This document shows positions 286 through 61,184 of a stretch of DNA of 64,000 bases, in pieces (the stretch's first letter is position 1; each line of letters begins with the position of its first letter). Made by a program: the position numbers and the translations under genes. The stretch is from assembly GCF_003073045.1 (NCBI RefSeq), contig NC_037590.1, forward strand, positions 20,548,449 to 20,612,448. The letters are read 5' to 3'. This DNA comes from Pomacea canaliculata (lineage: Eukaryota > Mollusca > Gastropoda > Architaenioglossa > Ampullariidae). The notes beneath the pieces are model-generated. The model did no database searches. It saw nothing but the letters and a program-made list of their open reading frames with translations, and was not told the origin of the DNA.

Positions 286-3200
286 ATGCATCCAAAGGAT
301 ATTATCCCTTCGCGGAAACACTCCTGGGCCCTAGCCGACGCTAAAAGTTTCTGTGACATCGACTTCGTGAGCCTGCAGAAGACTCATGAGCTCTTCCTGG
401 CCCCCTGGGGCGGCGCAGACAGAGGTCTGACCAAGCAACAGTTCTGTGAAGTGGTCAAGAAGACTGTGTGCAGCCAAATGACGGACGAAGAAATAGAACT
501 GTTGTATTCTAAGATAAACGCTGGCAGCTTGAAAAAAATCTGCTGGAGTGACTTCATCGACTGCGTGTTCCAGAAGATAGTGGAGCGCGACAACTTCGAT
601 CAGCTTCTTCAAATATCTTCTCTCTTTGAGAATTATTTGAAGTTAGTACACACACGGTACGTTTAGGTTGATCTTCATTTCTAATATAGTTAATACTTAA
701 TATACGGCGATGATTCGTTAGGCAGCAGGTGAAATTCCTTGATAGATGGTACATGCGTGAGTCTAAAAGTGTTTTTGATCGAAATGTCTCTTTAATTGGA
801 GAGGAGGTTCCTTTCAGTCAGTAGGTCCTGCATGGTACATACGGTCTTTGTATGAGCTTATAAGTTTGTCGAGTTTACTTAATAATACTTATTTTGAGTG
901 AATAGGTCTTTATAAATTGCGGTTAGGTCCTTATAAAAAAAAAGATAGTTCCTTATTAGTGCTTTTTGTGTAATGTGCGCTTACATTATTCTTCTCACGC
1001 TCCACACCTCAAAACCTCATCATAGTCCTGTCTGAATCTAAGGTAACATAACTATTGTTGTTTTAAAGGAAGGAGAGGTTTCCAATCGCAGACCTGAAAT
1101 GGGCCAGAAGCGACCATCTGCCCCACAATCGAATTCGTAACAGACGTTGCGTTTATCATGTGTTAAAAAAAAAAAAACAGAAAAGAATGAAAATAAGAAT
1201 AGAAGTATATAATATACCTGCTTTGGGGTGTCAGCTTCATTAGACTAATGCCATGGTTTGCTTGTATACTATTATTTCATGCTTGTTCAAAGACACTTGG
1301 ATCCGATAGTGGCCATCTGCTTTGTTCCTCGTTTGAAGAATACGTCAACGATAATCGACTACACCAGGGGGAAATACTACATGCTCGGAAAGGAAGGTGT
1401 AATTTCAATGTGGACAATGGGCATAAACTTGTTAGGATATCACTGTATTGGAGACTATTACCGAACCACAACCCAAGTAAGCTATGTGGACATGAAAACC
1501 TTGTACCCTTCCTCTCTGGTCGCCATCATCTCTACAGAACGCAACGTCACCTTCTGGGATGTGGGCAGTAAAGGTAAGGCTCAACGAACGTGTTTAAAAT
1601 GTGATGTGAAACAGTTATTTGCTTACATGTTCTTCGCTACTGAACAATCGTTTTGAGTCCAAGTTTTTACAAAACCGGTTTTTAGCTCGCTGAACATTTC
1701 TCAAAACAAATTCAAAGGCGTGCGTAGTTTAGCATGTATTACAACTTCCTGTCGGCAAAGTCGTTAACATTACTGAACCCTCGGCCGTCTATTTTTCAGC
1801 TTTACGACATCGGTCGTCGTTAGTATATAGTATACGTATATAAGTATAGTAAAAGGCCATAGTTATAGTTTTCATAACACCACTGTGCGTCATCATCAGA
1901 CTCCCACATTCTATCCTCCCTCCCACAAAGACAGTCACATACAGATAACGGACGTTCTCCCTCTGTGCTGCTAAGCAGTGGAACTCTCTTCCACATCACA
2001 TTCGCCACTCGGACTCCAAGGTTTAAATTCAAACGCTTTCCGTAAACGTATCTTTTCACTAAGTACTATCCCTGAATTACTCTACTATACTTAACTCCCT
2101 CACAATCTGTCGGTCATGTTAACTATAATGTAACGACTCCATCTTTAAACTGTTCACGCACTTCCACACACCCATTCACACTCATTCAATCATCCATTTA
2201 TGCTTACACCTAACACTAACTCACCCACTTACCAACTAACTGATTCATTCACTCGCATTCACACACACACACACACGAATTCACACATCCCCATTCCTAA
2301 CCCCACCTCCATCCCCACTCACACACCTCACACACTTACTCAGATAGGCTAGCGAATGGACAGAGAGATGTCCTTTTTATCTATTCGGCATATGAGAAAA
2401 GCCTGCTTTGTTTTTCCAGGAATGGAGCGTAAATACTACATCCCGTTGTCTAACTGTCCCACGTGTCTGGAGTACTGGACCGACCTAAACTCTCGCTCAC
2501 GTAGTCTGTTGTTCTGGGGCGACACTGCTGGTGATGTGCATTGCCTCGAGTTCAACGTCAACCGCAAAGGAAGTATTTTTATCAAGTCAGAAACAAAAGA
2601 ATACCTCGAGAAAGTCCACTATCGTGACCTTCTTCGTGGAAAGTTAGTGATACCAGAAGCCAAAATAAAATTGTGCTTCATTTCCTTTTCTGACTAATTT
2701 AAGTCAAGAGTAAAGCTAAGCTCAGTTCTGTTGGCGTATCAGCAAAAAGAGCGGCGAAGGGTTGGTTGTTACAAACATGTTACACATTTATTTTTTATCT
2801 TCTTTAAGGACGCGACCTATCCTGGATTGACTTATTTCATTGACGACGGCTACGCTAGAGGCAGTCTGACTAAATTGTTCGCATGAATTTTTCCCTTTTC
2901 CAAAACTTATTTTAAAAAATAACTAAAAGAAGTAGAAGAAGAATTTAAAGTTGATAACAAAACAAGGATGCAAAAGTCTCTCATTTTGGAGCAACTAATC
3001 ACCTCTAACGAAATCAAGGCCTACCAAACCGCATATTTTTCGTTTTACCAATGGTGGGCTGGTGTTGACAGGGTCTCTGACGTCCGACTGTACAAGATGG
3101 CCAACATAATGAAAGGGTGGGTGAAACAAGTGCTCTATCTGCCGGCCTGGGGCACCTTTATAGCGTGCAGCGAGTGCAACAACCAGCCCGTCTGCTACAG

Positions 3201-6200
3201 CGAATTTCGAGGGAGGAAGAAGCGGAGTTACTACAGTTGTCGCAAGGGCGTGACGAGCATTGACGTCAGCAGGCGGCTGACCATCCTGGTCACTGGCTGC
3301 TTGGACGCTACGGTGCGCCTGTGGAACCTCTTCCTGATGGATTCCTCCATTGGCATCCTGAGGTATGTCTAAGGCATTTTGTCACCCTTAAGAACTTAAA
3401 GCAAAGTGACTAACAGTTATATCGTACTATGAGAAAACATTCTACAAACATTAACATTCACTGTTAAGTAGTTTGAGTAAAGAATAGGAAAATGGGTGAA
3501 GGGAGGAGAGATTGAGCCACTTGTTGCATCAAAAAAAAAAATATATAATAATAATAATAACATTAACAACAGGACTTATATATTTCTAAAATTATGTAAT
3601 AGACATGTTTTAACGTTAGATTCTGAAATTGTGCTTTCAGCTTTAATAGTAGTACGTGGGTGCACGTTTGTGTGCGTGTAACATATTTGAATACGTATCC
3701 AGTAAGTTTGTCATTTTTTTTTTTGTCTCCGTCAGTATACGTTCTTCCTGAAAATTCATGACAAAAATTAAGACACCTTTTTAAAATATTTAAATAGAAT
3801 AAACTTTATATCCTTTTTCTTAATGCTCATCAGAAAGTTTTTCAAACTATGCAATGATATACAAACAGTTACAAGTCTGTCCGCATGTGACCTAACAAGT
3901 CATGTCAATAATTAAGTAAAATGTTGTAACGAACTGTAACTGACTGTTCTATAAAAAAATTAAGCAATTACACAAGTTTGAAAAAAACATGTTTTATAGA
4001 CATTCTGTTTCCATTCTTTCTTTATTCCATTTTTTCCTTCTTTCTCGATCCCCTTTTCCCTTGTTCCTTGATGTTTTTAAAGGATCTCACTTCGTAGACA
4101 ATTAATTTGTCCTACACGTCGTCAGAGGTCATCTTCGCTCTATCGTTGCCGTTGCGGTCCGTGACTCTACTGAACACGTCATCAGCCTGGACAAAGGTCA
4201 CACATTGAACGTCTACCATATCTTGACCCACGAGTGCGTCCAGCGGCTGAGCGGACTGTCGACGTCTTTGATGGGCCCTAACCCTGCGTCTTCCTACTTC
4301 TACAACGTGGGATGCAACGAGTTCCTAATGGCTCACACCTCGATTGCCAAGACAGTTCCAAAGCCTTCTTACGCTGAGCAAATAGCTGTTCAATCACACG
4401 ATTTCCCTCTCACTGGCGTGGTTTACAGCTCCGAGTTTCGCAAGGTGAGTCACAAGACGCCAACGACTGGACGTAAGATTCCAGTGACGTGAGACAAACG
4501 TTCCTCACACGCACACACAAGCTTTCATTTCTTGCTCAAAGCGACTCTTTCCTTTGGTGAGGAGGGGATTCAACTGGGGTTTCTCTTACATATTTTTGCC
4601 CGTTAGGCTGTGGTGCATATCAGGTTCAGCTGGTCATTTTGGAAAATTTTATACTGAAATACAAGCACAAGACATATTTTTAAAAACTCTGAATAACAAG
4701 GTCTTACAAAAAGGATTATAGGTGAAAATTAATTCAAACCGTTCCCCAGATTTTGGACTAAACGAAAATTTACCAGGAAATGTGTATCAAAAGTGTTTAT
4801 ATAACATTTTGACAGGAGAGTCATGTACTGAATCAAAAACTAAAGCCAACGAGTCCAAAAAGTGTAAATGTTCCGGTTCCCGTATCGTATCACTCCGACC
4901 AGTAAACACGCGGTTCTGTCTCCTTTAATTTGACCAAACTCCAAGTCAACCTTGATGACCGTTTGGTAATTTGGGATTACGTTAGGTCTAATAGAAAAAG
5001 TTTTTTTTATTGAAAATAAAACACATGCGGTTAAGGTTACTTTAAACAAGTTCTTACGATTTAGCTCCCGTTTGTGTTTACTTTTTACTTAATTATTCCC
5101 ATAATTCAGGGTGACCAGTGCTGCCACACATTGAAATCGTGTCATTTATATTCTTTTGTTGTATCGGGGAATTACGAAGAATTATGAGCATACTTCTGGT
5201 GTCTTTGACCATTACACACAGTCATTGCTTTTGCTTCCGACGCAGTGTGTTCGCTCAAGTCTTCGCATTCTGAAAAGGTTGTGTCTGTTGACGACAGATC
5301 GTCAGTGTTTGTCGAGGTGGCATTATCAAAGTGTGGGACATCTACACGGGGACCGAGACGTTCCAATTTCATCACTTCAGCCCCCGCACTCCGCATAAGG
5401 ACGTGGTGTATGAACCTGAGCACCACAAACTAGAAATCACTGCCCTGGCCATGGACCAGACAGAGAAACGCGTCGTGACGGGGGCTGCCGACGGAACCCT
5501 TAACTTGTGGAACTTCTCCAGCGGCCTCCTTCTCAACCACTACTCCCTGCCCGAAGCGGTCAGCGTCACAGCCATCGTTATGGACAAGGTAAAAGTTGCT
5601 GGGAAAGCGAGGCTCACAGCGATGGTTGCTAGGCAACGCCTAAGATGCTACACAAGGAGATCATGATGTTACCACCAGGCAAACATGCACACATACTTCA
5701 TTTCTCTGGTTTCTATCTTGCCTGTTTATAATGTACATGAAGAGATCACTGCAGGTGATGTAGACCATGATGGCACTACCAATATTATCATTCCACGCTG
5801 CAAAATAGTTCCCAGATGGTCTATCTTCTGCTTTCAGAGGTATATTTACGCAACTGGCTGGCACAAGAAGGTGTACGTCCTCAACACAGAGGAAGAGGCT
5901 CCAACGAACATTTTCAGTCCTTGCGTCATGTGCACAAGGAGGACATTTTGTGCATGATCTTTATTCCCCAAAACATGCTGGTCACTGCCTCCTACGACGG
6001 GGATATCATTGTCGTAGCGCGCGAGACGGGAAACACGATCCTCAGGATAAATGCTTGTCAAAGCCGCTACCCAATAGTAAAAGACATACATGGTAAGGCT
6101 GCTCATATTTTCTATGCAAGTAAAAAATATATATATACTTTTTTTTTAAATAAACTGTGTACCATTTGGTCAACGTGAATAAATATTAGTTCCCACGGGT

Positions 6201-9200
6201 TCCTGCTTTTTTCTCTTTTCTCGTGATTACCTTTTTTATTTTAAGTCTTTGACCAAAAAGAACACCCGCAATCAATTCCTACAGTGTCATTCGGTTAGAT
6301 CACTTTTAGCAATAAAGTGGCTTTTGAATTGGGAGCTGGTTTATTTGTCGCGTTAACATATCCTAAAAGTTCCCTGTCCAACTTAAGCCACACAAACACC
6401 ACTACCACAAGATACAGACAAAATATTTTGATAATTGTTGAACGTTTTTCACGAAAAGGTATATTAACGACACCCACTGACCAGGTGGAACAATACTCTT
6501 GTGAGGAGGAGGACGAGTCATGTGCTGACGTCTTCGACGTGCTGACAGGCCGCTACGTCACACGGGAGGAGAGCGACGCCCAGACTCAGACTTTCGAGAA
6601 CTCTGTGGACGCCATGCTGTTCCTCCACACGCGGCATCCCAACGATGAGAGGACTGCCACCCTCATCACGGCGTGCAATGAAGGGTGGATTCGGGCGTGG
6701 TCACTCCACACCAAGGTGAATTCAGAAAAGACGGAAAGAAAAGAAAAGAAAAGAAAAGAAAAGAAAAGAAAAGAAAAGAAAAGAAAAGAAAAGAAAAGAA
6801 AAGAAAAGAAAAGAAAAGAAAAGAACATTTATTTGGGTCGTGTTCTCATATGTTTATTACGTCTTTTTAATCCAAGGCTGTAGCGGTAGGTATCACAGAA
6901 AGAGAGAGCAAAAATAGAAAAAAAATCATTACATGCATGGCCTGCACACCATCGGAAACAAGATTTCTTGGTATTGTGAACAGATCTGATCCAGATGCAA
7001 AAGTCCCTTAAAGATGTTGTAACTCGCAAAAACCGTTGTACAAACAGCATGTTTGAGAACACCTCATCATGTTGGTCATGATAGGATCCATAAACTAGAT
7101 GTCCAGGATTCATGGAAAATGTTTTTAAACGGGGTAGGACGTAAACATCTATTTATTTGTGTGTGTGTCCCAGGGTGGGCTGCTAGGCCAGTTCGCGGCA
7201 ACAGAAAGAGTGGGAGAAATGGTGTTGGCCATGACGACCGACCCAGAAAACGAGTTCCTCATCACCGGCGACACACTAGGCTACGTTAAGGTGTGGGACC
7301 TGCTCCTCTACTGTAACAGAGAGGCCGAGTCTATTTCGGATGAGGAGCTCAAAGAGCGAGACGACGTTTTCTGGAAGAAATTTTTCTACTTTAGGTCTAC
7401 AGTCTTGAAAGACGAGGTATGAAACAGTGTCACACACTACTGCCAATAAGCTACACTCACTGGGCACAAGTGAGCGTTCCTTTTATATGTTTGTATGTTT
7501 GCTTGTTTGTTTTTTGTTGTTTTTTTTTTTTTTTGTTGTTTCCACCCATATCGTGATACATTAGTTTACTGGAAGGACTTTAAGCATGGATCACCCTTCT
7601 AACATTATCCATCACTCTTTTACGTTGAAAATACATTTAAAACATACATAGGTTAAAAACTCCAAGCGGAAAAATAAACTTTAGGGGTAAAACGCAAATG
7701 ACATAAAATATAGACATAATCTTCTAACGGTTTGATTCAGAGGGTACCGTAATATATGTCTCACAGATACGACAATCGACATTCAAATGCTCGCCAGTAC
7801 AGAAATTTTTCCCTTCGCAACTTTCATCAATGCACTGGTCAGTCGAAGCACAAAAATGTTCTTTTTTAGCTTTAATTCACACTTTCGTCATATGATCTGA
7901 CGGTGTTGACGGTAGGACAAACTACAAACATGATTTTTTCTAGGCAGCGAACGGAAATTACAGTCCACACAAGAGGCCGCCTCCACTAACATCTCAACCA
8001 AAGTCCACACTAAAGATTCCTCGGTTGTTGAACGTGTTCAGGGCAGATCGAGAGGCCATCACCTGCATCACATATGTGGCCAGTAGCGAGCTGATTATCA
8101 CTGGAAGCACTGGGAAAATGGTAGGTAAGAAACATCTGCCTGCCACTAACTAGTTTTATAAATTTAATGCTTAGTATTGCGTCTTGATTTGGAGAATCGG
8201 AATGTTTTACAAAATAATGACCCTTGTTGACCATTTGGTCAATGAATGAATCATCCAATCGATCCAACAACGTTCGGTTGATAAATGAATGAATCTGAGG
8301 TGCAATTCAGCGACCAATCCGCCTGTTGATAATAAAGACGTGATCGACCGGATGAACAATCAGTGAACCAGACCATCATCATCGCCTGCTTTGCCATGTC
8401 GTCGTCAGATCTGACATCGAAGCACTCTTCAAAATCTGTACCTTGGATTTGTTTCTTCACAGGTGCGTTTGTGGCTGTTGAGTGGCCGCTACATCGGCAC
8501 TTGCGGTGACCCCTGGCCCGACCTCATCGGTCCACGGAGGGTGAACGTCGCACTGCGCAGTCTTCCTGTCGACCTGCGGAGGTGTGCATCAGCGAGGACA
8601 TTCAGAGTCACCAATACGGGATCCAGGAGCCGGCTGTGGCAAACCGCCATTTCGCTCATCAAGGAAAATCTTCGAAGATTTCGTCAAGTCTGGAACCATT
8701 TGTTTCCCACCATTCTTTCTGTATTACCTCGTTTTGCATGGCACAGGTAATAAATTGTCTCGGCCTGTACACGGCGTTTTATTGAAACTTCCTTGTGTTA
8801 CAGGACCCCCAAAAAACACCTGCAGTAGCAGACAAAGAATATTATTCTGTGGAGCAAGCTCAGAGAATAGAAGAAGAGAGAGAAACGGTAAAACAATGGT
8901 TATCTTATATATGAATTTTTGAGAGTTTGCTTTTAAAGTCCTCACCGTCCTCACCATCACCAATCCTTTAGCTCTTACTGGTCGTTGGGGCAACTAACGA
9001 TAATACCACAAAGTCCTACTGTTTTCTACTATATGAAGCGGTAAATGAGAGGCCAGTGGATTCTTGTCTGTTCCTGTCTGTTTTTGGTTTTGTTTTTTGG
9101 GTTCTTTTTTTTGTTTGTTTGTTTGTTTTTGTGCTGTGCAAGTCTGTTAACAGCAGCCAGGGTAATAGTATGATCCAATCATTCATTTGCTTCTCTTTCG

Positions 9201-14529: not shown

Positions 14530-14729
14530 ACTGACTTTATCTCGGATGCTCACAGTCACTGAAGCCGAGAATACATCTCTGGATACTTTCTGCTTTTTAA
14601 GAAGGTTCAGGTTCAGGCTCAGCCACGCTCAGCATCTGAATACCCCACCCCTCCGTCTCACTGAGCCACTGGAGCTGACATTGGAAAATTGTGCCAAGTA
14701 CTACTAACTGTATCTCTGAACCGTCCACC

Positions 14730-17700
14730 ATGCATCCAGAAGACCCTAAACCACCCACTAGTCCTTCGTTTCCCCTGACCAAGCTTAAAAGTTTCATTGA
14801 CCTCGACTTCGACACTCTGAAGGAGACCCACGAGTTTTTCATGGAGCCTTGGGGAGGAAAGGACAAAGGTCTGACCAAGAGCCAGTTCTGCGAAGTGATA
14901 AAGAAGACCATTGGTAGACAGTTTACGAACAATGAAATAGAGTCCTTGTTTGAGAAGACAAATGCCAACTGCACACAAAGGATCTGCTGGAAAGACTTTA
15001 TTGGCTGCATAACTATGGTGCTGCAGTACCACAACTACTTGGAAGAAACTGCCCTCAAGATGCCGATCTTTCGGCCTGAAGTAAAGTTTATTTCTGACAT
15101 GTAAGTACTTAGGTCTATGACAAAATTTCATTCCGTCAGTATATATTTAGGTCAGAGAAGAAGTTGATGTGCATTTGTGCAGGAGACAAAGTTTATTTAT
15201 ACACTGTGTATAAATAGGCATGAGATGAAATTCCTTTCTGGTCAGCACCTAGTCCGAAATAAAGTTTGTTTAAAGTCAGTAGGTATTGAACGCGCTAAAA
15301 TGTTATGCGACACTTCGTGCGCAATGACCGACGACGATATGACGATGACCGAGAGTGTCCTCCGTCCAGTGGTAATACTTACTAGATCTGCTACCATTTG
15401 TGCAGGCCTTTGCCTTGGAAAAATATGTTCTGTGATATCAGGTCCTTCACCACATTGGCCTCATGGGTTTTACTGCCAAAGAGTTCAGTTTTCTTGGATA
15501 AATGAAAGATACTGGAGCAGATAACCTGTTTGTCCTTTCCACACCATGGTAGCACTTCGTTTCCTCTGAAGAGCTGTTCAGTCGGCTGCTGAAAGGTTGA
15601 GATGAACATGTTGCCTTTTTTGTCTGATTGCTATCACTACTTATAAAAAAAGTAAAGGTAACATGTCTTACACCTTTGGCCGTACCACGTCATTACCACT
15701 TCTAAAGAACGGTATTTAAAGGGAGGATCTCCCTCCAAATTTTATCTTCTTTGATTAATCGGGAAGACTCTTCTGAAAAAGTTCTAGGTGGGCAAAGAGA
15801 GTTTTCCAGTCAAAAATCCAAGAGTGTCTTGAAACGATTTCAAAGGCGATCTTCTGCTCTACAGCCGAAAGTACAAACCTCTGTGCTACGGATTTTCTTT
15901 CCGTTGAACGTACACGTACATTCTTAAAAATTATTATTTTTTGCATGTAAAATGAACCTGTCTTCTGAAAGCAGCTCCCGTTGACAAGAGTTTATCTGAG
16001 CAATGCTCCTTCTGCACGTCTACAGACACAGGAAATCCCATAGTAGCCATCTGCTTCGTTCCTACCTTGCGGTTACAGTCCTTGGCAATCGACTACAGCA
16101 GGGGCGGTACTACATGCTGGGAAGGGAAGGTCTTATTTCGATGTGGACATTAAACATGAAACTGTCAGGCTATCGCTGGATCGGATCGGATGGTCGAAGC
16201 AGCTTACCCAAATACTACATCGACATGACAGTCTTGTATCCTTCGACTCTGATTGCTGTGATCTCTACAGAGCGCTGCATAGCTATCTGGGAAATGCACT
16301 CTGACGGTAGGCGCACTGAACATTTCAAGATGCTGCAGCTGTCATCATTGCATACAAATCATACATGGCTAAATTGTGCTTGTGTTGAGTTTGGGTTTTT
16401 TTTTTTTTTTCAAAACAGTTTGTTCTAGTCTGCCTCTTCACCCTCTCCCGCCCATTTTGAAACATTAATAGTCACCGCATGATAAAAGAAGAAAGAAGAA
16501 ATGCAGTAACTATCCGCTTTCTGCGGACACAAATGATATATAATGATAATAAGGGTAGGAATACGGTAAAGCTGTAGTTCTTGACCAACTGTCTTAGCAG
16601 TTATGCAAAATCTGAGTTATGTCTACACACCGTGTCCTGGTAAACACAAACAGATGGACAACAGACAGAGATACCTTATTTGTTTATTGTAATGAGGTTG
16701 AGGAATTCATGCTTTTTTTTTCTCGAGGCATATCACTTAAATACACCATTACCGCGTTGTCTAACTGTCCAACATGCCTGGACTACTGGGGTGACCTAAC
16801 TTCACGCACACGCAACCTGCTGTTCTGGGGCGACACTGCTGGGGACGTGCACTGCCTGGAGTTCAACGTCAACCACAAGGAGGGACTGTTTATTAGGAGT
16901 GAGACGAAAGAAAACATGGTCAGAGTTCACTACACCGACCTCCTCCGTGGCAAGTTAGTGATGCGTCAAGTGAAAATTTACTCGTTGTTTGGTCGTTGTG
17001 CGTGAGAATGGGACTTAAGGGCTAACCCCACAGAAAATGGCGTCAAATTATCTTCCAAGCTAACAGAACGTAACGCTTTCCTTTTGTTACAAAAAAATGT
17101 GCGTGTCGCGAGATTCTTGTTGTTTGTTTGTCTGTTTGATGTGGTTTGATTTGCTTTCACATATTTGTTGGGGCGTAGAGTTTAAATGGATTGCCTTACC
17201 TTCTCTCCATTTAATGCTGCAGCTTCGAGCAAACGTTTTTTGCGACTTACTAACACATAACTTTTTGACCTCTTTCCAGATTGGAAATAGGACATTAAAA
17301 ATATTGTATCTCGCCACTCGAAAATTGTTTCGTCATATTTCCGATAACTAGTATTTTCGAATGAACTAAATAAACCTTCTAAGATTATTTTTCGAATAGC
17401 GCTAACCCAGTCCATAGAGATGTTTGAACACTTAGACAACGACATCAAAGGACGATTAATATCTCTGATCGCAGCGTCTTTTGTAAGATCCAAGTTGACC
17501 TATTACCCCACTTCGCCGTGAGCCGCACTCACCATCAGTTCAGGCTCACCTCAATTATAAAATGGTCAAGCTATAGTTGCCTTCCTGATACCTGTCGGAG
17601 ATGCGGACCCAAAAACCTTCTGTCCATTCGACCCTCGTGTATGAGTTCTGCATTAAAAGAGAGAAAAATGTGGGTGTGGTTCTATTTCTTTCTCTGGTCT

Positions 17701-20700
17701 CAGTGTCTCTCGCTCTTTGCATTGACTATTTTGAAGATCTTACCTTCAATGCCTGGCGATTTCTTTTCTATCACAGTATTGACCCTTGGACAGTTTCTTC
17801 CAGTTTGCACGCAAACCCTTTCAAATATCCCTATAACGAGTCCATTTTACAAGAAGCAGTACGAATTAGTTTTCAGTCTAGTATTGAACTATCATAACAC
17901 ATGAGTGAGAAAAAGTAAAAAGGGTCAGTTTTAAAACGGTCCATGACTCGAATTTCTACAACTAGCACTTTCAGATAAATAACTTGTATTATTTAAAATA
18001 TCCTTTGATCATGAGTATCAGAAGACAAGTGCCCTAGCACTGCTATTGACAAGAAAGTTTAATTACTGATGCTAACATTAAATATGTACAACATCCTTTC
18101 CTGTCCGAGAGGTTAGAACAGTGCATTCTGAGCCGAAGTCATGCACACTGACTGATTCAATACCCATTTGACGTAACGTACTTCGCACAGTTGGTCCACC
18201 TGTAGAATGGGTACCTGACTCCATATAGGGTAGCAGTTGGTAAGACAACTAGGGAGACGAGACAGGCACCGCTCTCACTAAAGGTCAAGTCCTTAGAAAA
18301 ATTAGTGTCTAACATCTCCTTTACCATCTACTGAGGGCACGGCACTTTTACCTTTACTCGATGGAAAATGCTTTACTTTTACCCGATAATCCGGTCTGAC
18401 GGGCTTCAAAGACCGTTTCAAAAATCTCGAACAATGATCTTTGTTATTCTTTCCTTTTAATTTGAATGAAAGTATCTTTAAGCACATTAAGACCTTCCCC
18501 ACATCAAAAACAACCTTAACCCTTGTGACAGTGCATAGTGGTGCTTAAAAAAAGCAATAAACAAACAAGACAAAAAACAAACAAACACGCAACAACTTTT
18601 CGTGACGACTGTTTCACACGGTCACAGGATTTCTGGCGTCAGACTGATCAAGATGGCTGCTATTCACAAAGGTGGGTGATAAAAATAAGATACCTGCCGA
18701 AGTGGGATGCCTTTATCTCGTGTAGCCAGACCAACATCAATTCCCTCTTCTACGGCGACTTTCACGGCAAGCGTGAGTACTACTCATGCCGCACTAGCGT
18801 GCTGTGCTTCGAGTACAGCGTTCAGCTCAACATCGTCGTCACAGGATGTTTGAACGCTACGGTGTTTGTGTGGAACTTCTTCGTGAAGCAGACCCCCATT
18901 TTTAGATTAAGGTATGAGCTTAATTAACCCAAACCTCTCTCCTCGATATTTCTTAAAAACAATTTTCCTGTGACTCATTCTTTACAATTATTCTTGACAT
19001 ATTCTATTGACATATATAATCCCATGTTCTATTTGCCTGACTTGTCTGATTCTGGATGATTTTTTGACTGATTTTTTTTATATTATTATTTCGTTGTTGT
19101 TTAACATCGATCTTTTCACATAATTTTATATTTTTACTTTATTTTACATATTAATGTAAGAACACTAAGTGTGACACTGGGCTATACAAGCTCTTGAATT
19201 ACTATGAAGCAGAGGGTGTTCGCTCACACGTTTACAGTTTAATAATATCCCTTTGGAGGCACATCTATCCAGATGAAAAACGAGTCTTTGTATTTCAGAA
19301 CACTGCAGGGAAGACTGGAAAAAAAAAACAGTAGAAATTTGTGCAATGTAAGACTTTTCATCAAATATGCGATTAATATAATAATTTATTAAAATCTACC
19401 CTTATTAAATTTTTCTCTCATGTGATTAGGGGTCACCATAGCCCTGTCATTGCCGTGGCGATCCGAGAGGCTACTCGGCATGTCATCAGCGTGGACACAG
19501 GACACGCCGTGAACGTCTACAATCTGTTAAACCAGCAGTGCATCCAACGGTTTGGCAGGTTGTCGATGACCGCGCTGGGCGGTCTGCCCACAACCAGCCA
19601 CTACTACAACCCAGCACGTAACGAGCTGACAATGGCCAGCACCACTATTGCCTGGGCTCTCCCTGTTCCTGTCTTTGACGTGCGCTCTGACTATTCCGAG
19701 ATATGCTCGCATGATTATCCTCTCGTTGGCGTTATCTACAGCTCCGAGTTTTGCAAGGTGATGCACCAGGCTTTAGCTAGTCAGCATCGGATCTGGCTGT
19801 CCCAAACTAAGTATGGACAGGGGACATATCTTTCTTATTCACAAAAAACAGATACTTCATTTTTAGCTACAAAGTCTTTATAGAATTTTATCAATTTGCA
19901 GATTTCTGTTCATAAGATTGTCAACTCCCTCAAATGTTCTTTATGCTTTGCAGATGAAAAGACAAATTGTTGTTAAGGCCGTGTCAGCTAGTGTATTCTG
20001 GAAAGATCTACACAAACACTTTCCCATTATATGCACATCCTTGAAAAGTTGTAATTTCGCTGAATTTAGTTGAACTTCCTAACCTGTTTTTAATTCCTTT
20101 TGGGGGTAGGGAAAGAAAGACTGGTTGAGAAAGGGATCTAAAAAATAAAAATATTTTCTTGACAACAGGTCATCAGCGCTTGCCGAGGTGGCTTTATCAC
20201 CGTGTGGGACGTCTACACGGGGACTTCGATTTTGCAGTTTCGTCACTACAGCCGCCGCACTCCGCTAAAGGAGGTAGAGTACGAATCGGACTGTAACAAG
20301 TTAGAACTCACTGCCATAGTCATGGATCAGACAGGGAGACGTATAGTGACGGGGGCTACCGACGGAACGATTAACTTGTGGAACTTCTCCGGCGGCATCC
20401 TCATCAAGAACTACTCCCTGCCCGAAGCGGTCGTCGTCTCCGCCATTGTCAACATCAAGGTAAAACGTCCACAGGCGCAAAAGTAATGCGAAAGGAGATA
20501 GGTAGTAACATCACCTACTTCAGAAGTACGTGTCTCGTCAGGGGCATCAAGACGAGGTCACTTGGAGACAAGGCCTTAGTGTTAATTGTATCAAAATTTT
20601 GGAAATTCTAGAAAAAATGGAAATATAGTGCATAAGGAGACTAATTATTGCTGGGATGGTTACTGTCTTTTTCTCTTCTTTTCTCTTCACCTCACTCTCT

Positions 20701-30081: not shown

Positions 30082-33000
30082 TCACAGAACCTCGCAGGGT
30101 CTTGTTCGGGGCTTTTTTATTGGTTTGAAAACTCCAGCTTTGACCGCCTCGTCGAACACAGCCTTTACTCCTCTCATTGTAAGAGCGGAGCACTCGAGGT
30201 ACCTGACAGCCCCTATACGCTGCGCCAGCGTGGAACCCTGCAACATATATATAGTATAGTGTGAGAGGAAACATTAAGTACACGGTCACGTGGTCTAGGG
30301 GCCAGTTGCACAACATGTTCTAAAAAGCAAATTTAGAAAACTTTATTTCTCCTAAGCCAGTATAGATAGGCTTTGAAAGTAGTATTTTCCCCTCTAAACT
30401 TAATTCTTAAATCAGTTCGGTGCTGTTCTAAACTGACAAAAACGTATTAACATGATGACCACGATTATCACAATCAGCCTCGAGAAAGATCTCGAGGTGT
30501 TTATAAACAAACAAAAGACTCGGTGATGAGATTACGATCTCGACAGAATTGTTGAAGAAATTGCGGTGACTACTGACAAAAGCACAGTGCGAAAGTCCTA
30601 GAAAAATAAATATAGTTAGATAGGATGCGAATAGTCAAAATTTAAATACGTTAAATCTTTCAAAATATATTTTTAATTTTTCGTTTTGTTTATTTGTGCA
30701 GGCTGACTGAATGTTTATCTATGTTGTATTAATGCTATTCGCGATTTTATTTAAATAATAACCATAGTAATATTTTCAGTTAGATAATTTGCGATAGTCT
30801 ATGGCTATTTTTATTTCTTAGTCAATGACAAGCTCCTCGGTTTACCATTACCACGACGATATTGTTGACCTGTGCTTAGGCTACTAAAAAAAAAACAACA
30901 ACAACAACAACAAAAAACAAAAACAAAAACAAAAATTAAACAGATAACATTTTATCTGTTTGTTGCACATAAAATTTACTGACGCTGACCGAGAGAAGTA
31001 GCAGTTAGAGAAGTGGTGAACTGTATGCCAAGTTGTTGAAAGGGTTAGGACTTACTGATTCCCATACAACACGTAGCTAGATAATTAAAAGGAAATGCAG
31101 GTCGGTAGACTGCACATAAATTGGTGATCCTACGATATATGTCTTGAGAGTGCAGAAGACAAAAAAGCTCGTTTGCCAAAAATAAACACTTGACCTACAT
31201 CGCGTGGCGACTAATCACGGGAAGCCTGCACCGCGCACTCTTCAACTTCCCGGTGCGAGGCCCAGACTTGCACCACCTGTGCGGTCTGCTAATGTGATCG
31301 TATCTCAAGGGTTCGCCGAGTGCTGACGGGCGGGGATGGAGGATGGGAGGGTGAGAGGGCGCGATGGGAAGTCTGGCCAAAGATCGCGGGCCGTTGAGCA
31401 GCTCCACAAAAGAGGGGAAAGTGGGACACGATGTCTTTGTTATGCTTGCTAGAGTCTGAAGTATTAGTGGCTGAACAGTGTCGAAAATTACTAGGAGAAA
31501 CTCAAACTTCGAGACATAAGGGGTGGAGATGGCGAGTAGGGGTAGGGTGGGGCGAGAAAGTCGACTCATCATTACAACCCGCTTACCGTATACAGGAAGT
31601 CAGATCCTGGAAATTTTCCCTGCTGAGTATATAAATTCCCGATGACGCTCTATCTTTTAAGTTCTAAGCAAATAAGTTTACAACACACGTCAGTAATGGG
31701 GTGTGAAGGGGCTACCCCATACAAAGTACATAATATGTGAACCAGGGCAGCATAAAAGCGCCATGTCACCGACAACAAGCCGTGCTTTATAAAACCTGCG
31801 TCATCGCGTTTTTATCTACTTTTAGCCCTCAGCAGCAGAGAAAGCAAGTCTCCGCCCACTTTTTTATATTTTCTTCAATGACTTGGCATTCTATAGAATT
31901 ATAAATCTAGTCCCGGGCTTCGCCTAAAGTCCCGCTTTATACATTACATTCATGGAAAATTGATCAAAGCAAGCACGCCCTCTGACCTCGGAGTGTGAAA
32001 TGGGTGCCAGGTTCTTGGCTCGCAGCTGTTGCACAGTCTCCTTGTCATCCCGCAGATCCAGCTTGGTGCCGACCAGCAACATGGGCACATCCGGGCAGTG
32101 GTGACGCACTTCCGGGTGCCACTGCACAGCACAGACACACGACTGTTACAATACTCTCCATGGACTGTGTATCGATGGAAGGATTATATAGTTTTATTGG
32201 TGCGACCCATAAAATTTGCATGCATGGTGTAAGCTTGTTGAACCTGTTTGTGCCTTACCTTGTGCTTGATATTTTCGTAGCTGGAAGGACTTATGAGCGA
32301 ATAGCACAAAAGGAACACGTCCTGAAAATAACAAATAAGGACTTGAGAAATATTTACAATTAAAAATATTAATTAAATTAAATTTTCAGATTTTTTAAAT
32401 GAAAACAGCCACAGAGGGATGATGACGATGAACAGCTACTGCTATGTCAGTCCTCACTAAGATAGAGGGTAACGAACTGCTCCAACTAAGCCCAATAGCT
32501 CTCCTACAGATAACTGCACAGATTATGTATTCAATTCAATTCAATTCAATTTAACTTTATTATCTCACTAGGAGAAATTAAAAGACGTGGTAAAACAACT
32601 GGCTGATAATAAAACTTATAATAAAAACTTAATAACAACTTAATTCCACTCAAACTATCATCTCACACAAACACCTGCAGTCCATGTAAATACCCGACTA
32701 AATAAGAAACAACACTAAAACTATATTCACAAAACCACACACCCACACCCTCACACTCACAAATCCTTCCAATACTTATTCAGTAAGACAACAGACTGGT
32801 GTAGAAAACTATAACTGTATAACTGGCAATGACTGATAGGAAATTTCTCTCAGAGTAAATTATTTTATCTTATTGACACCGATCACATCAACAGGAAGGG
32901 GAAAGTGGAAAGGGAATGAAAGTGGTCTCCTAGCATCTTTGTCTTCACGAGAACTGAGACCTACCGTGCCTGGATATGACAGCGGCCGGATGCGGTCGTA

Positions 33001-33176
33001 ATCTTCTTGGCCGGCTGTATCCCACAGCCCCAGCTCGTACAGCTCTCCGTTGACATGCACGTGGGCTATGTCGTTATCAAACCTGTCAACCCAGGTCAGA
33101 GGCGTTACATAAGCGTTCACACTTTTTTTGTCAGCCAAAACACCAAGTCTCTGAACAAATTTATTTTTCTTAGTTC

Positions 33177-33222
<46 letters not shown>

Positions 33223-34063
33223 ATTAAAATTGTAATATTTATCGAACTTTGCACGATAACTTTCAATAAATATTTTGGAATTATTCTGAGAGCTGTGTAA
33301 CAGGGTCCTGCCTTATACTTACACTGTGGGTATGTATTCGCCAGGAAACATTTTCCTTGTGTAACTCATAAAAAGACTTGTCTTTCCAACAGCCCTGAAA
33401 CAAAATGGCAGTAAGAAGTGACACCAGAATAACAGCCTTGAAAATAACAGCATTAGAAGTAGCTCAATAGTTATTGTTAAGTACGGCCCTGTAGAAATAA
33501 TTACATGTTTCGTGAAGAAAAAGCTTCACTCAGCACCTAAGTGCCCAGCCCATTCTTCACGGGATGCTTCTTGAACTACTTTAGCGCCAGACCGTACAAG
33601 GGAGGGATCAAAGCAATAGAGACTTGATGAAAGTAGCTTTCTTCTGTACACTTATGCAATATTGCAGAACCTAGTTGTGTCAGCCATGCAGGCACTTGTC
33701 TTTCTTCTAATGAACACTCGTGTACCACCCTTGCTTCTCATCAAAGTCATGGAGACCTGGTTGGTCCAGCTCGCCGTCAAGAAATGATATAGTCTGTGCA
33801 GATGTTTGGGAACAATGCATGGACTTGCATCCGAGCAGTGGCATAGAGAGATTCGCGCGAGTGGAGTTTGACCCTAAGCAGGAATCGGAAGGAAACACAA
33901 GTGACCTCTCAAGTTCCTAGCCTTTGACCCGATGAAACACAACGCACCTTCGCCAATGCCTTCGTGAGGAATACATCGCAAAAAAAAAAATAAAAATGTC
34001 ATCCAACATAATTTTCTCCACTCACCCATCGCCAACAACCACGCATTTGATGTGTCGCTGCAT
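30082..34063 (-). CDS. Divergent Rac-like small GTPase, six exons, 193 aa
   Basis: Exons (minus strand, 5' to 3'): 34063-34026, 33394-33323, 33082-32965, 32321-32259, 32121-31987, 30237-30082 (stop TGA). All introns are GT-AG, and the exons total 582 nt = 193 aa plus stop. The protein starts [13 protein letters not shown]. It carries the P-loop GDGAVGKTS, switch [23 protein letters not shown] with the catalytic Gln at 62, GTKLDLRDD for guanine specificity and ECSAL. It ends in a basic stretch (KKPRTR) and CaaX box CEVL, predicted to be geranylgeranylated. Compared with Rac1 it has one extra N-terminal residue, Ser for Cys18, Asp for Tyr40, and no Cys178 equivalent. Intron positions match the neighbouring Rac1 gene exactly. 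It should cycle GTP/GDP at membranes; effector choice is probably altered. Intron 2 has a CT microsatellite and intron 5 (1.75 kb) a GC-rich patch at about 31200-31420. Confidence 0.92.
32522..32580 (-). mobile_element. Probable non-LTR or SINE tail with (ATTGA)n repeat
   Basis: Read on the minus strand, a GTGAGATAATAAAGTT segment is followed by four ATTGA-type units. Such pentamer tails typically mark the 3' end of a retroposed element, and the body would extend to higher coordinates (up to about 32860), but I see no coding trace there. It lies in intron 3 of the Rac-like gene. Confidence 0.35.
33181..33217 (+). repeat. (CT)n microsatellite
   Basis: An uninterrupted TC run of about 18 units in intron 2 of the Rac-like gene, followed by TGTGTG. 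Confidence 0.95.
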
Positions 34064-41900: not shown

Positions 41901-42176
41901 GCAATAGAGAGAGAAACATAAATCAGCGCTCTAGAATTTATGTGCTGTCAAAACTGCTCGTATGTTTCTAGGCTAGTAAGTGGCCCGCGCAGTGTGGTCA
42001 CAAAGACAAACTATAATGATTGGGTTAACTACTTTCTCGTTCTCATAGAAACGACATACAGAATGGACTAAAGAGGCTGAACGTAAGCATAAGGTGAAAT
42101 CAGCGCGCGGGGCCAGGTACAAGGAATACACTTGCTTATGTAATGCAAAAGATACAAAAAATAAATGTGATAAGAA

Positions 42177-42276
42177 NNNNNNNNNNNNNNNNNNNNNNNN
42201 NNNNNNNNNNNNNNNNNNNNNNNNNNNNNNNNNNNNNNNNNNNNNNNNNNNNNNNNNNNNNNNNNNNNNNNNNNNN
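42177..42276. other. Assembly gap (100 N)
   Basis: Exactly 100 N, the conventional placeholder for a gap of unknown size. The flanking sequences are the same ~4 kb segment on both sides, so the true gap may be negative (an overlap). Confidence 0.97.
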
Positions 42277-45200
42277 GTCCATGAGAGGGTGAGGAGAGTG
42301 AAAAAGAGAAGGTACATATGGTGCAAAAAGGCATGACAAATGAAATAGGAACAATCGATTGGTGGCGTAGATGAAAAGACGTCAGCCGCAAATCTGTTCT
42401 GCGATGGGTCATCTTTTTGGAGAGCTCGAATCAATATGTACTACTATTTTTGTCACCATAGTTAACGCCAAAGTATGAACGTGTCCTGGTTAACTTTCAC
42501 ATTTCACCGTGAACTGTCAATGAAGAAAGCAATTTAGATAAATCGTGGCCTCGATTCAGTTCGGTGTCAAGAAGTACAAAAGAAATGCTAGATACATAAG
42601 GTTATCATCGGATTGACTTTGACTAGATAATACATAGACGTCTAAAGGCAGCGCAAAGTTGCTACAAGAGAACACGTCGGTTAAGGACCAGGAAGCAAAT
42701 CGAAGTCAAGTGAATACCGCTTCTCTCTTTTGCTCTCTTCCTACGCAAGCGTCTCAAGGTGGATTGGAGTCATGCAGGGATAGCGCATGTCACCAGCTGA
42801 ATATGTGGTGCCTGTCCTGGATTATAATATGTGGTATCTCGTTCTGTCTCACGACATTGTGAATCCTTCTATATGCATGTATTCCACATCTCTCGACATC
42901 ATTTTCATCACTGCCATTATATCTTATAGGCTTATTATTTGTCTGTCTTTATGGTAGCTCGACGTTTAAAACCACCAATCTCTGTCGTTCACTCCCGTTC
43001 ATTCCAGTCTAATAGATTATATAAAAGAGGTATAGCGTCCACTTGGATGTAAGTAGCGACTTTGCTGGTTCGAACATTCCGAAGCACAGAACACGCACAC
43101 TAACAGGACTACTGAGTGACAGTAAAGTTTGTTTGTACCAACATCCGTGTTAAGCACCGATCACCACCACCAGTTGGACATTGGATACTGCAGGTAAAAG
43201 ATACATGAATGGGTACCTGTTAGGGAATGTTAGTAAGCAGTTCAAGAGAGCGAGTAGACTTGTGCAAACGTCTCACAAATTGCTGGTTGCCGAACACAAA
43301 TTAAGTTGGGTCTCTTAACTCTTTGCGATTTCCACGACCGTAATAACACCAGCACTATCGTTTGATTCATAGATAACATACTTCTGGTTACTAGTACGGC
43401 ACTGACACTCAAGCTTTGTCTAATATTTCACTCCTCCCTGTAATTTGACATCACAGGCCTTACATTTTGATAGTTGCGTGAAATGGAAAAGGACAGAAAT
43501 ATTTTTTAAAAATTATATAAAATCTGCTATAGTTAGTAAGGTTATGCAAGTGTTTAAGCATACAACTAGTATTCCAAATCTGTGAACAGTACATAATGGT
43601 ATTTCGGTGACCAACAAAGTGTGTATAACCTGCACTGACTTGGGGATCTGAATAGAACCCTATAGCAGCATCGTCTGTTCTACATTTACGGAACAATTAA
43701 TGCCAAGTAATCAGTCCATTACATCATGTGCCATCAGTCTTCTCCCATATACTTCCTGCTCCCTAACTGACAGTGCATTGACGAGGAAACGAGGCGCGCT
43801 TCTCCAGGTCCTGCGCAAGACGCATGACAAGCCCTTAGTACGCACACAGCTGGTGGACCCAGCAGCAACCTGCGCAGCGAGGCAAGTTGTTGTGGCAAGA
43901 AAAGATGACTCAGTCTTTGGAGATGCAGGGTGGATTAGGAAAAAACCTCAGCTGGGTCCAACATCTCCTCCTTTTTGCCTAACTTCTGCCTTGCCTTATC
44001 ACGTGAGTTTGGAGGTACAACTACGAAAGCGAAAAATACATATTTTTAACTTCTCACGAAGACTTCATTCCCTTAAATTTGTTATTGAAGCATCGAGGCG
44101 GACATGCGCCTATTAAAACATCTAGAACCGTTTGTTCAGGTTGGTTAAGTACCTATGCCTCTTTTTTTGTAATAGAACCCCGCCACCCCTGCAAATTTGT
44201 CTGTATCCATCTTACACCAGCATTCAGCACACGCGAGAACCATCGGAACAATTAACCCAGTTAAATACTTAAATCAGAACTTACATGTTATGATGGTCTG
44301 CTATTGCTTAATCACACACATGGTGCTTCTTCCTTGATTTAAGGCAAGTTCTATGAGGTAAGAGAAAAGAGCAGGAGGAGGTTTTGGATTTGCGGGTTGA
44401 GGTAAACGTTAAAGGATCGAAAGCCCTTAACAAGGAGAGTGACGGTACACGGAAATTAAGACCGGGAGCATATGGCACTGGTTGCACATGCGTCGCACCT
44501 CCCCCTCCCACGAAAAAGAAATGAGAGCGCATGCAGGACACGAGTATACCTCTAGTTTGTGGAGACGGTGAGGTGGCCACATCCGACAGCAGGCGCTACG
44601 CCTAACTCTTCGTTCACATTACATCGATAAGCTATAAAATTAATGAAGCGCACATTGCCTCCTTTTTACAAGTGAGAGCATTTTCATAAGAGGGTTTCAG
44701 GTATAGACCCTAGCTGAATAATCGGACACCATCGAGAATGTCATCTTGGTAATCCAGCTCTGTAAAGTATCTCGAAAACATACTTATCAAGGGTTTTTAC
44801 AGCTGTCCCTACTGCCTAGGTAATGAGGACGGCGAATTAAGTCTGTAATATAAATCTGCTTAACCCGGCGTCCGCATCCATTGATGAAATCTCAATCGAT
44901 GCATCACATGCTTTCTCCTTAATCAAGCACTAAATAAACTGAAATCCCTTTCTCTATATATACCTCTGCTTTGGGTCCAGGAGCTACATTCCCATTTTTT
45001 TGCGACTGAGGAGTCGAAATGTAGCTCCTGGACCCAAAGCAGAGCTAAGGCAGCCGAGAAACACCACCTAGTCCCAAATTATTCTTTAGAGTGGGTAACT
45101 TGCTACAAAAGTGGCACTGAAGGCTTTAACTGTCCCCAGGATACACACTCTTTCTCTCATAAATATGAGTTTAAGGACAGACACATTATAATTGGAATTG

Positions 45201-49103: not shown

Positions 49104-61184
<12,081 letters not shown>

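What the first reader, a model, noticed from the sequence alone, without database searches (positions are those of the whole stretch)
30082..34063. Rac-like GTPase with Asp in place of Rac1 Tyr40 and other key changes
The gene has intact nucleotide-binding motifs and catalytic Gln, and all six exons are open. The effector loop reads FDND instead of FDNY. In Rac and Cdc42, Tyr40 is needed for binding CRIB-type effectors such as PAK, so this protein probably cannot use them. It also has Ser for redox-sensitive Cys18 and lacks the palmitoylated Cys178, while keeping a CaaX box (CEVL). It looks like a Rac paralogue retuned for different partners.
Basis: partly seen in the sequence, partly recalled or inferred. 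Interest (0 to 1): 0.75.

Follow-up and report, generated by a model that had tools for sequence, protein, structure and literature searches.

The report
Snail Rac1 duplicate with altered effector face
Next to its normal Rac1 gene the apple snail carries an old, intact second copy in which a key contact for switching on partner proteins is changed from tyrosine to an acid, and other snails share this change, so it looks like a long-kept Rac rewired to different partners.

Summary
The protein equals a named Pomacea canaliculata protein. Asp40 is no error or private oddity: proteins from Littorina, Nucella and Babylonia and five unnamed contigs (one degenerate) have Asp or Glu there, and group together with (100/99) and without (99.1/100) the effector-loop columns. 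New here: the canonical Tyr40 Rac1 lies in the same window (54017-49104), same strand, with all five introns at identical positions and phases. The gene is an old tandem Rac1 duplicate, distinct from the snail's own Mtl and Cdc42. Of twelve conserved positions changed across the group, eight lie at 20-52, around sites reported for PAK-CRIB, NOX2 and the WAVE A site; Phe37, Trp56 and most of switch II stay. Most likely a membrane-anchored, normally cycling Rac uncoupled from PAK-type effectors. No binding or expression was measured.

The parts
34026..34063 (-). Asp40 Rac gene, coding exon 1 ([13 protein letters not shown])
   Evidence: donor GT; P-loop start
33323..33394 (-). coding exon 2 (AVGKT, Ser18, alpha1, switch I start)
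   Evidence: AG/GT borders
32965..33082 (-). coding exon 3 with FDND (Asp40 codon GAC 33072-33070), Trp56, DTAGQ (Gln61), Ile67
32259..32321 (-). coding exon 4
   Evidence: AG/GT borders
31987..32121 (-). coding exon 5 with TKLD (G4) and the Rho insert region
   Evidence: AG/GT borders
30082..30237 (-). coding exon 6 with ECSAL (G5), basic tail, CaaX box CEVL, stop TGA
49104..54017 (-). canonical Rac1 (Tyr40, Cys18, Cys178, CIVL): exons 54017-53983, 53071-53000, 52607-52490, 50567-50505, 49688-49554, 49259-49104; parent copy of the tandem pair, same five intron positions and phases

Best explanation
The gene is an old head-to-tail tandem duplicate of Rac1, kept in caenogastropod snails. SHOWN: intact GTP-binding and catalytic motifs; Rac-type Trp56; basic tail and CaaX box; Asp/Glu at position 40 in every member of a well supported group; a neighbouring canonical Rac1 with the same intron layout. 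INFERRED: the protein cycles between GDP and GTP like Rac1, is geranylgeranylated (Leu at the last position; rule recalled) and held at membranes, is loaded by Rac-type exchange factors, but when GTP-bound no longer engages CRIB effectors such as PAK, probably not the p67phox/NOX2 arm either, while Phe37/Trp56/switch II partners remain possible. It would thus be a Rac output channel without the PAK branch, working beside ordinary Rac1.
For: Gene and motifs. Group with acid at 40: eight proteins, 100/99 in a 120-row tree; with P0234 nine, 99.1/100 after dropping positions 36-44. Four named species fall in three caenogastropod orders. In the eight, P-loop 8 of 8, DTAGQ 5 of 5 and switch II 16 of 18 positions are invariant. 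Tandem pair with identical intron positions and phases; 124 of 192 residues identical; pS 0.79 (saturated), pN 0.22. Own Mtl and Cdc42 exist elsewhere and lack the GDG intron. Y40C in Cdc42 raises the PAK1 Kd above 1000 nM (PMC9241073, passages); Rac1 G12V/Y40H is described as defective in activating PAK1 yet forms broad lamellae, F37L binds PAK1 and does not change cell shape (PMC4610213, passages). T25, N52 and Q74, all changed here, are reported close to the PAK1 CRIB on Rac3 (PMC8625570, passages). A27K Rac cannot bind the NOX2 complex (PMC8353492, passages); the eight have M, Q, E or H at 27.
Against: No biochemistry or expression data were seen. The mutants at 40 in the papers are Cys or His, not Asp. 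Protein trees cannot place the group: by the AU test, origin inside molluscan Rac1 (p 0.20), as sister of Pomacea Rac1 (0.12), outside all Racs (0.63) and with RhoG/Mtl (0.42) all stay open, and two weaker measures (bp-RELL 0.04, c-ELW 0.04) speak against the sister-of-Pomacea-Rac1 tree. Pomacea departs from its relatives at 26 (Lys), 41 (Ile), 42 (Ala), 45 (His), and has Asn39 like P0104 where six have Ser. The clustering of changes was tested after the list had been seen and depends on window and cut-off.
Confidence: 0.62

Rival explanations
1. Acid 40 is tuned to one or a few snail CRIB effectors that changed with it, so CRIB signalling is narrowed, not lost.
For: Asp38 and Thr35 are kept in 8 of 8; D38A is reported as very harmful for Cdc42-PAK1 (PMC9241073, passages); the residue at 40 stays acidic (Asp 7, Glu 1) rather than drifting.
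Against: No candidate partner was looked for; loss of Tyr40 is severe for PAK1 in the published case.
Confidence: 0.15
2. A fast-evolving duplicate under relaxed constraint, on the way to loss, without a specific function.
For: Long branches; 64% identity between Pomacea and Littorina copies against 96.9% between Pomacea Rac1 and Patella Rac1. P0234, a close relative of P0104, has a broken G3 box (DTGGQ).
Against: Intact G boxes in eight proteins, four of them from named species in three orders; the same replacement classes at 25, 40 and 67 in all eight; four unnamed relatives come from contigs of 1009-1454 bases holding whole proteins, most likely spliced transcripts (inference).
Confidence: 0.12
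3. A divergent gastropod orthologue of Mtl/Mig-2/RhoG rather than a Rac1 duplicate.
For: AU test does not reject grouping with RhoG and Mtl (p 0.42); bivalve Mig also has six exons, bivalve Rac five (PMC4669188, Results part 1 read).
Against: Pomacea has its own Mtl with Tyr40 on C14, lacking the GDG intron and the intron before Trp97; this gene shares all five introns with Rac1, which lies beside it; identity 65% to human RAC1 against 60% to RHOG and 61% to an Mtl.
Confidence: 0.05

Closest known systems
Rac1 (canonical Rac, here window 54017-49104)
   Same: Fold, G boxes, Gln61, Trp56, Thr35-Val36-Phe37-Asp38, CaaX box, all five intron positions
   Different: Position 40 Asp for Tyr; changes at 20, 21, 25, 27, 41, 52, 67, 74; one extra residue near the N-terminus; no Cys178; 68 of 192 residues changed
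Laboratory effector-loop mutants Rac1 Y40H and Cdc42 Y40C
   Same: Tyr40 removed with Phe37 kept; predicted loss of PAK (PMC4610213, PMC9241073, passages)
   Different: A natural gene found in three snail orders, with acid not Cys/His, and with a set of further changes around the same face
Mtl/Mig-2/RhoG
   Same: Rac-like Rho GTPase; six exons in bivalves (PMC4669188, Results part 1)
   Different: Own Mtl present elsewhere with Tyr40 and another intron layout

Membership tests
Rac subfamily (by descent and fold) | Ras-type G domain with G1, G3, G4, G5 motifs, Thr35 and Gln61 | tested here: met
   Pfam Ras E 1.2e-48; motifs 8 of 8
Rac subfamily (by descent and fold) | Closest solved relatives are Racs; Trp56 (recalled as the Rac/Cdc42 exchange-factor discriminator) | tested here: met
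   best PDB sequence matches are Rac1 and Rac3; Foldseek top 3th5 Rac1, TM 0.84/0.92, from a model of pLDDT 80.5 with poorly defined switches; W56 8 of 8
Rac subfamily (by descent and fold) | Placed inside Racs by protein phylogeny | tested here: inconclusive
   AU tests leave all four constrained placements open
Rac subfamily (by descent and fold) | Gene structure and locus shared with Rac1 | tested here: met
   same-strand neighbour, five of five introns same position and phase; Mtl and Cdc42 differ
Rac subfamily (by descent and fold) | CaaX prenylation cysteine and basic tail | tested here: met
   Cys189 8 of 8; 5-8 Lys/Arg in the last 18 residues; prenylation itself not tested
CRIB-binding Rac/Cdc42 GTPases | Aromatic residue at position 40 | tested here: not met
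   Asp in Pomacea, Asp/Glu in the group; Tyr or Phe in 158 of 159 others once P0234 is counted with the group
CRIB-binding Rac/Cdc42 GTPases | Nucleotide-dependent binding of PAK/WASP-type CRIB domains | not testable with these tools
   needs a pulldown
Mtl/Mig-2/RhoG | Orthology by locus and intron layout | tested here: not met
   separate Mtl on C14 with other intron layout

The most novel reading that the evidence does not exclude
The duplicate is a natural one-sided Rac: it keeps the surface used at the tight D site of the WAVE regulatory complex (V36, F37, W56, Y64, R66, L70 in 8 of 8) but has altered the PAK/NOX2 face and part of the A-site face (25, 27, 41, 52). Since activation of the complex is reported to need both sites, it could hold WAVE complexes at membranes without firing them, acting as a built-in brake or primer for ordinary Rac1 that blocks the D site or lowers the Rac1 dose needed. 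Snails would thus have split the Rac1 output between two neighbouring genes.
Probability: 0.15. Interest if true: 0.8.

Novelty: new variant of a known kind. Interest (0 to 1): 0.58.

Why it matters
Single-residue effector-loop mutants (Y40, F37) are laboratory tools to separate the branches of Rac signalling. Here a lineage appears to have fixed such a separation in a second gene and kept it across three snail orders; in Pomacea it lies side by side with an almost unchanged Rac1. That offers a natural test of which Rac outputs can be detached from PAK, and of how an extremely conserved effector surface can be rewired after duplication.

Tried and rejected
Sequencing error or one-species oddity: rejected, relatives share the acid. 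Mtl/RhoG orthologue: rejected on locus and introns, though protein trees do not reject it. Redox (Ser18) and palmitoylation (Cys178) loss as defining traits: rejected. Codon selection tests: not done, I found no source of orthologous coding DNA among the collections; Rac1 versus this gene is saturated at silent sites. Three protein searches each scored only 7988-7991 candidates that share most words and listed 120, so absence of the group from other gastropods is not shown. Literature: ten searches, several with lists cut short (for example 12 of 10,236); no listed title or abstract start concerned this snail gene or an acidic residue 40 in a Rac; the library lacks most subscription papers. 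The promoter/terminator scan is for bacteria and was of no use. Flanks of the window (L009, L010; 7461 and 6561 bases) gave no Rac-like match at E 1e-3.

Full report
WHAT IS THERE. The minus strand at 34063-30082 holds six open coding exons with AG/GT borders that join to 582 nt and 193 aa. Pfam gives Ras (E 1.2e-48). [quoted passage not shown] The genome has 440 Mb in 24 contigs. Gly12, Lys16, Thr17, Thr35, Asp57, Gln61 and TKxD are intact in this protein and in all seven relatives examined with it.

NOT A ONE-OFF. Among 164 proteins fetched by the first two searches a pattern scan found seven with Asp and one with Glu at position 40; the third search added a ninth, P0234, with Glu and a damaged G3 box, read by eye. 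Named sources are Pomacea canaliculata, Littorina saxatilis, Nucella lapillus and Babylonia areolata, which lie in three orders of Caenogastropoda. A tree of 120 single-domain proteins puts the eight on one side of a branch with 100/99 support (the tool warned of long branches and of a bootstrap not yet settled). Since the eight had been picked by position 40, the tree was redone with 49 rows, without positions 36-44 and with RAC1, CDC42, RHOG, RHOA and an Mtl: the nine still group at 99.1/100. In the 160 other Rac-like proteins of the column comparison position 40 is Tyr 154, Phe 4, His 1 and Glu 1, the last being P0234. These 160 were fetched for likeness to the query, so they are not a random sample of Racs.

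THE PARENT IS NEXT DOOR. A Pfam match at C1:20600914-20601054 is window 52466-52606. Reading that region shows the canonical Rac1 on the same strand, 54017-49104, with FDNYSANV, Cys18 and Cys178. Exon lengths are 35/38, 72, 118, 63, 135 and 156 nt in the two genes, and all five introns fall at the same positions and phases. DNA similarity is confined to five blocks of 33-142 bases at 68-85%, whose coordinates fall on exons 1, 2, 3, 5 and 6. Pomacea Rac1 is 96.9% identical to Patella Rac1, while the duplicate is 63.5% identical to Pomacea Rac1: after duplication one copy stayed almost frozen and the other moved fast. Silent sites are saturated (pS 0.79; pN 0.22). The snail's own Mtl (C14) and Cdc42 (C2) have Tyr40 and run through the P-loop to PTV in one exon, without the intron after GDG. 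Own-genome search gives 61 matches; those of 85-98% identity are the exons of this gene itself, so no second near-identical copy was seen (the tool says that counts are lower bounds). The exons of 11 other Rho-type genes read at this place (Rac1, L006, L011, L016, L031-L035, L037, L038) all have Tyr; other Rho-type matches were not read.

WHAT THE TREE CANNOT SAY. With positions 36-44 left out, AU tests accept the group inside molluscan Rac1 (p 0.20), as sister of Pomacea Rac1 (0.12; but bp-RELL 0.04 and c-ELW 0.04 are marked against it), outside all Racs (0.63) and with RhoG/Mtl (0.42). Descent from Rac1 therefore rests on locus and introns, not on the protein tree. Whether the copies of the other species also lie beside Rac1 was not seen.

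WHERE THE CHANGES LIE. Of 108 positions (3-178) that are at least 95% constant in 159 other Racs, twelve are changed in seven or eight of the eight: 20, 21, 25, 27, 40, 41, 42, 52, 67, 74, 165, 172. Nine Fisher tests were made, three stretches at three cut-offs, all after the list had been seen. For 20-52: p 0.0013, 0.0026 (8 of 29 against 4 of 79) and 0.055 at the 90, 95 and 98% cuts. For 23-55, the stretch named for the WAVE A site: 0.046, 0.081 (6 of 29 against 6 of 79) and 0.66. For 56-70: 1.0 each time. So clustering is suggestive, not proved. Published contacts: T25, N26, M45, N52 and Q74 lie close to the PAK1 CRIB on Rac3 (PMC8625570); A27 is needed for the NOX2 complex (PMC8353492, which also reports C18S as redox-inert); CYRI-B touches N26, N39, S41 and N52 and is said to clash with Lys at 27 (PMC7955166); the WAVE A site uses 23-25, 26-37 and 38-55, with bonds to T24/S41, N39, D38/F37 and N52, partly to the backbone; the D site uses V36, F37, N39, W56, Y64, R66, L67, L70 (PMC9481577). 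In the eight, V36, F37, D38, W56, Y64, R66 and L70 are unchanged, L67 is Ile, N39 is Ser in six. All these papers were read in passages only.

MECHANISM. Published mutants without Tyr40 lose PAK1: Cdc42 Y40C has Kd >1000 nM (PMC9241073, passages); Rac1 G12V/Y40H is described as defective in activating PAK1 but makes broad lamellae, whereas F37L binds PAK1 and leaves cell shape unchanged (PMC4610213, passages). The snail protein combines a lost Tyr40 with a kept Phe37. The best reading is a normally cycling, probably prenylated Rac that no longer feeds PAK-type effectors and keeps Phe37/Trp56 partners. The bolder reading, that it occupies the WAVE D site without the A site, follows from the report that both sites are needed for activation and that the D site binds about 40-fold more tightly (PMC5614565, passages); it is inference, and several A-site residues remain (T24, G30, F37, D38 in 8 of 8, E31 in 7 of 8).

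STRUCTURE. The AlphaFold2 model has mean pLDDT 80.5, pTM 0.80, with low confidence at 27-38 and 62-64, the switches. Foldseek's best match is Rac1 3th5. The model says nothing about effector choice.

EXPRESSION. Not measured. Four unnamed relatives come from contigs of 1009-1454 bases that hold whole proteins; in Pomacea the coding exons span 3982 bases, so these are most likely spliced transcripts (inference). The name 'isoform X2' suggests a model with transcript support (inference).

VERDICT.

Noticed in passing
window 286-6178 and 14691-19883, + strand: Two similar series of ORFs with WD-repeat-like pieces look like tandem copies of one gene; of five ORFs scanned there two had WD40 matches, below the cut-off.
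   Followed up: partly
window 58343-58690, + strand: ORF with a WD40-like match (Beta-prop_WDR5 E 1e-07, below the curated cut-off).
   Followed up: no
within window 41973-42434: A run of unknown bases in the assembly; ORFs there read X.
   Followed up: no
L038 (G000:C2:45009150-45009450) and L018: Another Rac-like exon pair with FDNY and GFPSEYVPT; the P-loop part shows a stop, so it may be a decaying copy.
   Followed up: partly
L033, L034 (G000 C8 and C4): Rho-type genes with unusual loops PTCFDSYSGE and PTVFANYASE, both keeping Tyr at position 40.
   Followed up: no
protein P0104 and P0234: Both have Glu at position 40 and Cys in place of Rac1 Glu62 (GQCDYD / GQCKYD); P0234 also has DTGGQ and looks degenerate.
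   Followed up: no
window about 33180-33220: GA dinucleotide run in the intron just upstream of the exon with FDND.
   Followed up: no
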